The notes beneath the pieces were generated by a model that saw nothing but the letters and a program-made list of their open reading frames with translations, had not been told where the DNA came from and made no database searches. A stretch of DNA of 64,000 nt. Origin: Lineus longissimus (taxonomy: Eukaryota > Nemertea > Pilidiophora > Heteronemertea > Lineidae). Where the stretch lies: the NCBI RefSeq assembly GCF_910592395.1, contig NC_088312.1, forward strand, positions 13,826,001 through 13,890,000. Reading direction: 5' to 3'. A program made the translations under genes and the position numbers. Below, piece by piece: positions 43,558 through 44,376 of the stretch. Numbering within the stretch: the stretch's first letter is position 1; each line of letters opens with the position of its first letter.

Positions 43558-44325
43558 AGTTTCAGCGACACACCCCGGTGCTAGGATTGGAGAAGTATTT
43601 GATGTCGATTGCTTTGGCTTCAGAGGTGTAGAAAGATTGAAGCCCTGACTACTAGTATCCTTCCTGTCTTCCTCTATGGACTGGTTAGTAATAGGTAAGC
43701 AGTCGGCTATAACCGACACATTCCTACTATTACTCACAACGTCGATGGGACTGGGACAGTCAGCTGTCACTAACACCTTTCCCAAATCGCCATTGCCTGT
43801 ATCCTGATTTGCACAGTGAAGTGGCTTCTGATAGGAAGTTTCTTTGATATCTGTAACTGAAGACACAGCACCCTTGATTTGTGGTAGCTTCATAACAGTG
43901 ATTTGTATTGCCGTGTCTTCGAAGACATCATGTAAGACTTGTACGACCTTTGGCCACTGTAAACCATCTAATCCACAGCCAATCTTCGGAATAGACAAGG
44001 CCGTGTAACCATTCTTGAGAAGATGCTGTTTCATCGCTACAAGGCTTTCACGCAGGTCTGCATAACATGGTTTTTACCAGTGGGCCTGTTTTGTGACCAA
44101 GTAATAGACGTGACGCTGCTCCCGATAAAGAACTCCTATTTGGCCTACTGCGACTTGCTGGGCTAATAATTCCTTTACTCCGTTGTATCTGGATTTAAAT
44201 TCTGATGCAATTCCGGCACCCATGGCAAAATCCGCACTAACGCAGTGAGCCAACAGTTCTGTTTTTTGGCTAAAGAGGTCTCCAATTTTTTCTGTGATAG
44301 TGAACTGTTCATTTCGGCCTTCCAT
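43558..44325 (-). CDS. TARG1/OARD1-like macrodomain, N-terminal part of outer Pol; one in-frame stop
   Basis: Numbered from the ATG at 44325, the domain covers residues about 7-155. It shows GDLFSQKTELLAHCVSADF, AMGAGIASEF, YNGVKELL, VYYLVTKQAHW and SIPKIGCGLDGLQWPKV. These are the nucleotide-loop and catalytic-loop motifs of the TARG1 (OARD1/C6orf130) class, which removes ADP-ribose from acidic side chains. Lys79 (VTKQ) and Asp120 (CGLDG) sit 41 residues apart, the same spacing as the catalytic Lys84/Asp125 of human TARG1. The frame is open upstream of the ATG to the slippery site, so the domain would be made as part of Gag-Pol. One TAA (44076-44074, codon 84) interrupts this copy. After the domain comes about 90 residues of Ser/Asn-rich linker, cut by the TTAA insertion. 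Removing that insertion puts the linker in frame with the protease and RT. Confidence 0.9.
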
Positions 44326-44366
44326 TTTGACTTGGGCAGGAACACGGCCGACCTGTTCTGCCCCTC

Positions 44367-44376
44367 CTAGTTTAAC
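44367..44376 (-). other. -1 frameshift site, G TTA AAC TAG
   Basis: Read on the minus strand in the Gag frame, the last sense codons are TTA AAC followed by the stop TAG, with G before them. GTTAAAC fits the X-XXY-YYZ slippery type loosely (it is the heptamer used by some nidoviruses). A -1 slip leads into GTT AAA CTA GGA GGG, which is exactly the frame of the macro-Pol ORF. No downstream pseudoknot was modelled. Confidence 0.75.

What the first reader, a model, noticed from the sequence alone, without database searches (positions are those of the whole stretch)
43558..44376. Retrotransposon Pol with an N-terminal TARG1-like macrodomain
A macrodomain of the OARD1/TARG1 class lies between the Gag frameshift site and the protease of a Ty3/gypsy element, in frame with Pol once a later insertion is subtracted. 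The likely catalytic Lys79 and Asp120 keep the 41-residue spacing of human TARG1 Lys84/Asp125. Viral macrodomains are known to reverse host antiviral ADP-ribosylation. A retrotransposon carrying one inside Gag-Pol suggests an anti-PARP or particle-maturation role. The role is inference.
Basis: partly seen in the sequence, partly recalled or inferred. Interest (0 to 1): 0.9.

Follow-up and report, generated by a model that had tools for sequence, protein, structure and literature searches.

The report
Retrotransposons carrying ADP-ribose-removing enzymes in Pol
A group of jumping genes in an animal genome makes its copying machinery fused to a captured cell enzyme of the kind that strips ADP-ribose tags, and two different such enzymes occupy the same spot in related elements, which suggests that removing these tags helps the elements survive.

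Summary
A Ty3/gypsy element (minus strand, 47231-24690) has a TARG1/OARD1-type macrodomain between Gag and protease, reached by a -1 frameshift signal: GTTAAAC, 6-nt spacer, H-type pseudoknot. This copy is dead: in-frame stop between the two catalytic residues, piggyBac-like insertion, second LTR element in ORF3. A 98% identical copy elsewhere in the genome lacks both insertions and has the macrodomain open and fused to the start of Pol. A divergent family (46% macro identity) has the same fusion.

A protease-based search found five related loci with a different, MacroD-type macrodomain (MACROD1, E 8e-56) in the same slot; a macro-based search added a sixth. Five of these six have the same frameshift stretch. 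The genome also has OARD1 and MACROD genes split over exons, so two cellular genes appear to have supplied this Pol position. Between families pN is far below pS.

Best reading: Pol carries a packaged mono-ADP-ribosyl hydrolase that counters host ADP-ribosylation. Architecture about 0.95 secure; catalysis about 0.65; anti-defence target about 0.4. Our paper searches listed nothing on it; fish retroviruses with macro ORFs are a precedent.

The parts
47036..47231 (-). 5' LTR, 196 bp, TG...CA; TSD GTAA outside (47235-47232); primer-binding-site-like TGGTGTCAGAAGTG follows from 47034
   Evidence: 2 of 196 positions differ from the 3' LTR
44367..46574 (-). Gag open frame (stop to stop; first ATG at 46490), CCHC zinc knuckle near the C end
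   Evidence: PF00098 1.3e-06
44370..44376 (-). -1 slippery heptamer GTTAAAC in Gag frame, directly before Gag stop TAG 44369-44367
   Evidence: the same heptamer in Gag frame in L002, L004, L018, L019, L022, L023
44314..44363 (-). H-type pseudoknot: S1 44363-44354 / 44344-44334, S2 44351-44346 / 44319-44314; spacer 6 nt
   Evidence: 0 of 300 shuffles; 0 of 500; covariation
44074..44325 (-). TARG1/OARD1-type macrodomain, N half, with Lys79; ends at in-frame TAA 44076-44074
   Evidence: human C6orf130 E 1.2e-18
43867..44073 (-). TARG1/OARD1-type macrodomain, C half, with GCGLD (Asp120)
   Evidence: OARD1 E 5e-18
43558..43866 (-). linker between macrodomain and Pol, open frame
   Evidence: 0 synonymous, 2 nonsynonymous differences from L002 over the first 100 codons
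42194..43557 (-). later insertion: piggyBac-like element, 23-bp perfect TIRs including TTAA at both ends; THAP-domain ORF 43267-42947 inside; no transposase seen in the two ORFs scanned
   Evidence: site empty in L002
37968..42233 (-). Pol open frame: protease, RT, RNase H, integrase
37063..37574 (-). ORF3, first part, cut by a second LTR element
26011..37062 (-). nested LTR element (LTRs 37062-36633 and 26440-26011, 2 of 430 differ, TSD AATT; RT, RNase H, integrase frames) inserted into ORF3
25313..26010 (-). ORF3, second part: TatD-type DNase
   Evidence: PF01026 9.7e-29; uninterrupted at this site in the C11 copy, 5.4e-34
24690..24885 (-). 3' LTR with polypurine tract AGGGGGAGGA just before it (24895-24886); TSD GTAA after it

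Best explanation
This is a dead copy of one family in a set of related Ty3/gypsy LTR retrotransposons whose Pol polyprotein begins with a captured cellular macrodomain. Shown: Gag ends at GTTAAAC plus a conserved pseudoknot. A -1 frameshift there would give Gag-macro-PR-RT-RH-IN. The slot holds a TARG1-type domain in two families (three loci) and a MacroD-type domain in other families (six loci). Both kinds match cellular genes that this genome also has, split over exons. Inferred: because the domain is made only by frameshifting, it is a minor, Gag-linked product packaged in the particle with RT. There it acts as a mono-ADP-ribosyl hydrolase. It strips ADP-ribose that host transferases put on Gag, Pol, host silencing or sensing factors, or on the nascent cDNA, so that reverse transcription and integration can proceed. 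Two different hydrolase classes in one slot suggest that the reaction they share is what is selected, not a class-specific binding surface.
For: Class: (open copy vs OARD1 3.2e-42; DarG-type next at 7.7e-08); tree with animal OARD1, 100/99. Frame and expression; covariation on 7 sequences, 5 distinct: 8 of 16 pairs with double changes, 92.5% of cells paired against 31-50% when slid, four measures reached by 0 of 500 shuffles and the fifth by 1 of 500. Family-wide: 3 of 4 macro C-half matches in the genome are elements, the fourth is the host gene. Second class in the same slot: 5 of 32 loci scanned, MACROD1 E 8.2e-56 for L018, PF01661 in 5 of 6 proteins given, sixth locus L050. Constraint between families: pN 0.379 vs pS 0.883, TARG1-type, 127 codons; pN 0.280 vs pS 0.814, MacroD-type, 167 codons. 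Catalytic Lys in L002, L004 and the host gene (3 of 3 rows) and in the window. TARG1 Lys84/Asp125 chemistry and DNA-linked activity of the class: passages of PMC9411070.
Against: No biochemistry. The C14 TARG1-type copy lacks 7 residues including the catalytic Asp; L023 has Gln in place of His in GGGGVDGAIH. L030, among the closest in RT, has no macrodomain, and the RT tree does not show that the macro-bearing families are one clade. L020 shows no GTTAAAC in Gag frame. Close pairs of copies differ mostly by nonsynonymous changes (1 and 6; 2 and 9, 3 and 6), as in near-neutral decay, so they add no evidence of constraint. The pseudoknot score is crude (stacking only, no loop terms), and the structure counted was taken from these same sequences. 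The target is unknown, and only one genome was examined.
Confidence: 0.62

Rival explanations
1. The macrodomain is a reader, not an eraser: it binds ADP-ribose or poly-ADP-ribose and targets Gag-Pol, or the pre-integration complex, to PARylated chromatin or repair sites, much as integrase chromodomains bind histone marks in other Ty3 elements (recall).
For: It is part of the same polyprotein as integrase; macrodomains as a fold bind ADP-ribose; the C14 copy lacks the Asp but keeps most of the domain.
Against: The best matches of both captured domains are hydrolase classes. Catalytic positions are kept in most copies tabulated. The protease between macro and RT-IN would be expected to cut the domain off (inference).
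Confidence: 0.2
2. Nucleic-acid care: TARG1/DarG-type activity removes ADP-ribose from DNA or RNA ends, and with the TatD DNase of ORF3 forms a cDNA-maintenance set.
For: TARG1 and DarG reverse thymidine-linked ADP-ribosylation (PMC9411070 abstract and passages); TatD frame in both copies of the window's family.
Against: TatD was not found in the C14 stretch read; the loci of the MacroD-type families do not reach far enough downstream to tell. Activity of MacroD-type domains on DNA bases is not known to me (recall).
Confidence: 0.2
3. Passenger: one or two chance gene captures without function, carried along because the frame stayed open.
For: The three TARG1-type loci seen here all carry defects somewhere in the element; L030 does without a macrodomain; close copies look near-neutral.
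Against: pN far below pS between families for both classes; two classes in one slot; the linker differs in length between families while the domain is kept.
Confidence: 0.07
4. A host OARD1 retrocopy or pseudogene happens to lie inside the element in the window.
For: The host OARD1 gene is split over exons and the element's copy is not.
Against: A 98% copy on another contig has it at the same place, and a divergent family too; identity to the host gene is only 48-57% by exon match.
Confidence: 0.01

Closest known systems
Human TARG1/OARD1/C6orf130 (PDB 4j5q/4j5r/2l8r), TARG1/ALC1-like macrodomain class
   Same: Sequence over the whole domain (E 3.2e-42 for the open copy), Lys84 and Asp125 positions
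   Different: Stand-alone cellular enzyme; here the N-terminal domain of a retrotransposon Pol, without introns, behind a frameshift signal
Human MACROD1/MACROD2, MacroD-type class
   Same: Relatives of the element carry it in the same slot; L018 matches residues 27-234 of a 235-residue MACROD1 chain
   Different: Not in the window's own family; in the related families it is a Pol domain behind the same frameshift signal
[quoted passage not shown] 2009, seen only as cited in PMC4977317, passage)
   Same: LTR retroelements that captured a macrodomain
   Different: Retroviruses, and the macro is described there as an additional ORF; here Ty3/gypsy, between Gag and protease in Gag-Pol. Class and position of the fish domain could not be read (Basta 2009 not held)
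Macrodomains of coronavirus nsp3 and alphavirus nsP3
   Same: Viral macrodomain in a replicase polyprotein (recall); viral macrodomains counter antiviral ADP-ribosylation (PMC8003356 passages)
   Different: RNA viruses; nsp3 chains match the window's C half only at E 0.014 and 0.017
Ty3/gypsy (Metaviridae) elements with extra domains such as integrase chromodomains (recall)
   Same: Overall LTR-Gag-PR-RT-RH-IN-LTR plan
   Different: Extra enzyme-like domain at the N end of Pol, plus a TatD DNase ORF3

Membership tests
Ty3/gypsy LTR retrotransposon | Paired LTRs with TG...CA ends, target-site duplication, primer-binding site and polypurine tract | tested here: met
   196-bp LTRs, 2 differences, TSD GTAA; PBS-like and PPT sequences. 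Complementarity of the PBS to a tRNA was not tested.
Ty3/gypsy LTR retrotransposon | Gag with zinc knuckle; Pol order PR-RT-RNase H-IN | tested here: met
   Pfam order
TARG1/OARD1-type macrodomain | Best sequence match to TARG1 over the whole domain, clearly ahead of other macro classes | tested here: met
   Halves 1.2e-18 and 5e-18; open copy 3.2e-42 vs 7.7e-08 for the next class; tree with OARD1 100/99, order inside that group open
TARG1/OARD1-type macrodomain | Catalytic Lys84/Asp125 pair | tested here: met
   Both present in the window copy (on either side of a stop) and in L002; Lys but not Asp in L004
TARG1/OARD1-type macrodomain | Mono-ADP-ribosyl hydrolase activity | not testable with these tools
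   needs protein and assay
MacroD-type macrodomain (relatives only) | Match to MACROD1/2 over the whole domain, GGGGVDG loop (loop as a hallmark: recall) | tested here: met
   (L018, 8.2e-56); GGGGVDG in 4 of 4 rows printed, following His in 3 of 4
-1 programmed ribosomal frameshift signal | In-frame slippery heptamer, short spacer, stimulatory structure | tested here: met
   not seen in L020
-1 programmed ribosomal frameshift signal | Measured frameshifting | not testable with these tools
   needs a reporter
piggyBac-like insertion at 43557-42194 | TTAA target duplication and terminal inverted repeats | tested here: met
   empty site in L002
piggyBac-like insertion at 43557-42194 | piggyBac transposase | tested here: not met
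   the two ORFs scanned gave only a THAP domain; at most a non-autonomous element, so the name is tentative
Viral anti-PARP macrodomain | Counteracts host antiviral ADP-ribosylation | not testable with these tools
   inference from class and position

The most novel reading that the evidence does not exclude
A set of animal Ty3/gypsy families carries, as a packaged Pol domain, an ADP-ribosyl hydrolase taken from two different host genes (OARD1 and MACROD). Host ADP-ribosylation is therefore a direct restriction on LTR retrotransposition in animals, strong and old enough that these elements equipped themselves against it more than once.
Probability: 0.4. Interest if true: 0.88.

Novelty: new variant of a known kind. 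Interest (0 to 1): 0.78.

Why it matters
Viral macrodomains are known mainly from RNA viruses (recall), where they oppose PARP-based immunity. Here the same kind of domain sits inside Gag-Pol of ordinary LTR retrotransposons, behind a conserved frameshift signal, and two different macro classes share the slot. That makes it testable whether ADP-ribosylation restrains retrotransposons directly, and offers small natural domains for ADP-ribose biochemistry. It may also help explain macro-domain ORFs reported in fish retroviruses.

Tried and rejected
Host retrocopy or assembly junk inside the element: rejected by the second copy and the divergent families. Read-through of the window's TAA as real biology: not needed, since the second copy has a sense codon there. 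DarG-type, MacroD-type or coronavirus-type identity of the window's domain: rejected by E-values. Plain MFE folding of 127 nt gave no signal (z 0.57); it cannot form a pseudoknot, and the explicit pseudoknot search did find one. RT tree (16 rows; L019 dropped because its RT match was under 100 residues; L017 and L050 had no RT match): L024-L029 form their own group (100/100), and 13 rows including these, L030 and the macro-bearing families group at 96/96, but the order among macro-bearing families and L030 is open and the bootstrap had not settled. So it does not show that the macro-bearing families are one clade, nor tell one capture with replacement from two captures. Relatives of the window's RT in viral contigs: none confirmed. 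The macro C half alone found none in viral or prokaryote contigs; the alignment A1 found 4 viral contigs and 2 bacterial records, 33-42% identical. Papers: ten searches, several with capped lists (6 of 754, 20 of 2,733, 15 of 1,145, 30 of 31 listed). The listings showed no paper on a macrodomain or TatD in a Ty3/gypsy element; subscription journals are mostly not held. Troyka paper PMC12440569: word search only, no 'macro', 'ADP-ribo' or 'TatD' in it. PMC10499221: passages of its reference list only.

Not done: LTR copy count (genome search busy at every try); survey of other species; host name (G000 is unnamed); 9 of the 41 protease matches were not examined for a macrodomain. The local HMMs were built partly from the elements they then found (TARG1-type: L002, L004 among ten rows; MacroD-type: L018, L019, L022, L023), so those hits are by construction; the independent evidence is Pfam, the PDB search and the genome searches.

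Full report
What is there. The element lies on the minus strand, from 47231 down to 24690. It has 196-bp LTRs that differ at 2 positions, a GTAA target-site duplication, a PBS-like stretch and a polypurine tract. Gag (46574-44367) ends in a CCHC knuckle. Pol (42233-37968) is an open frame with protease, RT, RNase H and integrase. Downstream, ORF3 encodes a TatD-type DNase (PF01026, 9.7e-29). ORF3 is cut in two by a younger LTR element, 37062-26011 (LTRs 2 of 430 different, TSD AATT).

The macrodomain. Two pieces on either side of an in-frame TAA (44076-44074) match human C6orf130/OARD1 at E 1.2e-18 and 5e-18. The same domain in a second genomic copy (L002, next paragraph) is open and matches OARD1 at 3.2e-42; the next class, DarG-type, comes at 7.7e-08. 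Lys79 (LVTK) and Asp120 (GCGLD) correspond to TARG1 Lys84 and Asp125, the proposed catalytic pair (passages of PMC5087735 and PMC9411070).

Second copy. The window lies in an unnamed 391-Mb genome (G000). A search with the C half of the domain gave four matches: the window; a copy on contig C11 (L002, 98.2-98.5% at the DNA level over the two longest pieces); the host OARD1 gene, split over exons, 48-57% identical by exon match (L003); and a divergent element on C14 (L004). The C11 copy has its own LTRs (3 of 196 differ) and a different TSD, CCTT, and lacks the piggyBac-like insertion and the nested element. Its frame runs from the frameshift site through macrodomain and linker into the start of Pol, 320 aa. 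Its Pol is internally deleted and its Gag lies in several frames, so neither copy is whole. Differences between the two copies in the domain are 1 synonymous and 6 nonsynonymous over 152 codons, as in near-neutral decay.

A divergent TARG1-type family. In L004 a single 384-aa frame joins the macrodomain to the protease. The domain is 46% identical to that of L002, the RT piece 64% to the window's. pN is 0.379 and pS 0.883 over 127 codons, so the domain has been kept under constraint. This single copy lacks 7 residues including the catalytic Asp, and its Gag and Pol lie in several frames. In a small tree the element domains group with animal OARD1 (100/99) and away from bacterial and phage-like relatives; the order within that group is open and L004 is a long branch.

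Expression signal. GTTAAAC sits in the Gag frame directly before the Gag stop. After a 6-nt spacer follows an H-type pseudoknot (S1 10 bp with one bulge, S2 6 bp). By a simple stacking score without loop terms, 0 of 500 dinucleotide shuffles reach it. L002 is identical there, and L004 has the same geometry with different letters (S1 8 bp; 3 of 500). Plain folding without a pseudoknot showed nothing. GUUAAAC as a working slippery site in arteriviruses is recalled.

The unbiased search. To avoid fishing with the macrodomain, I searched the genome with the protease piece: 41 matches. I scanned 32 loci (15 returned with about 1.5 kb of flank, 17 more fetched with upstream sequence; 9 matches not examined) with HMMs for both macro classes. 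TARG1-type: L017 (the C11 copy) and L021 (the C14 element). L016 is the window itself, whose macrodomain lies beyond the insertion and outside that locus. MacroD-type: L018, L019, L020, L022, L023. The other 24 gave nothing at E 0.01. Among these is L030, whose RT is 71% identical to the window's and which has two aspartic-protease stretches and no macrodomain in its frame, with GGGAAAC in the Gag frame. The HMMs were built partly from these same elements; the independent support is the next paragraph's.

Two macro classes in one slot. The L018 domain matches human MACROD1 at 8.2e-56 over chain residues 27-234; Pfam Macro is met in 5 of the 6 proteins given, L030 being the miss. L018, L019, L022 and L023 have GTTAAAC in the Gag frame and a pseudoknot of the same geometry (0, 0, 1 and 0 of 300 shuffles). 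L020 shows no GTTAAAC there. Copies are damaged: in L023 the fourth codon of the -1 frame is a stop; in L022 the -1 frame and the macro frame differ; L018 has a stop between macro and protease; L020 has the macrodomain in two frames. On the alignment of 7 sequences (5 distinct) 92.5% of cells pair, 8 of 16 pairs show changes on both sides, slid controls pair at 31-50%, four measures are reached by 0 of 500 shuffles and one by 1 of 500. The structure was taken from these sequences, and relatedness alone can beat the shuffles, so the slid control and the double changes weigh most. L019 (661 aa) and L022 (1245 aa) carry macro and protease in one open frame. A MacroD search of the genome gave 9 matches at 7 places: six elements and exons of the host MACROD gene on C3. 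The sixth element, L050, has the same frameshift stretch, a stop upstream in the Gag frame, and no protease match in the locus. MacroD-type domains of two families: pN 0.280, pS 0.814 over 167 codons. The RT tree does not resolve whether the slot was filled twice or refilled, nor whether the macro-bearing families are a clade.

How it most likely works. Shown: position, frame, class, conserved frameshift signal, between-family constraint. Inferred: packaging in the particle, hydrolysis, target. TARG1/ALC1-like and MacroD-type are two of three hydrolytic macro classes named in PMC9411070 (passage), and removal of mono-ADP-ribose is common to them. A slot filled by either suggests that this reaction is selected. 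Possible targets are Gag/Pol or host factors modified by antiviral transferases (viral macrodomains counter such responses: PMC8003356 passages), silencing factors (SIRT6 ribosylating KAP1 to repress LINE1: title seen in that paper's reference list), or DNA (TARG1 and DarG act on ADP-ribosylated thymidine). TatD in ORF3 makes the nucleic-acid variant worth a test.

What is known. Fish epsilon-like retroviruses with extra macro-domain ORFs are a precedent (PMC4977317 passage citing Basta 2009; the original is not held). None of the listings of my ten paper searches, several of them capped, showed a macrodomain in Ty3/gypsy Pol. The parts are known kinds; the arrangement, with two classes in one slot behind one conserved frameshift signal, appears new.

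Noticed in passing
window 25313-26010 and 37063-37574 (minus); L005 3169-3945: ORF3 of the element encodes a TatD-type DNase with a further N-terminal part; uninterrupted around the nested-element site in the C11 copy. TatD in a Ty3/gypsy element was not seen in the one paper search made for it.
   Followed up: partly
L030 (C10:8253931-8254269 and flanks): A close relative lacks a macrodomain; its frame has two aspartic-protease stretches, and GGGAAAC lies in the Gag frame.
   Followed up: partly
L004 1261-1680: The C14 TARG1-type domain keeps the catalytic Lys but lacks 7 residues including the Asp; DarG also has only the Lys (PMC9411070 passage).
   Followed up: partly
L010-L013 (viral contigs), L014, L015: TARG1-type macrodomains with GCGLD and TK motifs in four IMG/VR contigs and in two bacterial records; genomic context not studied.
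   Followed up: no
window 17992-24817: Tandem pair of about 3.4 kb, 99.97% identical (17992-21397 and 21412-24817), which includes part of the 3' LTR, so the duplication is younger than the element or is an assembly artefact.
   Followed up: no
window 4684-9163: Tandem array of an 89-bp unit, about 4.4 kb (offsets).
   Followed up: no
window 36350-36908: Second, tandem partial copy (279 bp) of the end of the nested element's 5' LTR.
   Followed up: no
window 34320-35357 (minus): Gag-like frame of the nested element matches PNMA weakly, below Pfam's cut-off.
   Followed up: no
window 52846-53544 (minus), 54578-56141 (+), 61392-62872 (+): Other transposon remains: a Psq-type HTH ORF and DDE_Tnp_4 ORFs.
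   Followed up: no
window 49933-50262 (minus): PHD-finger ORF of unclear origin.
   Followed up: no
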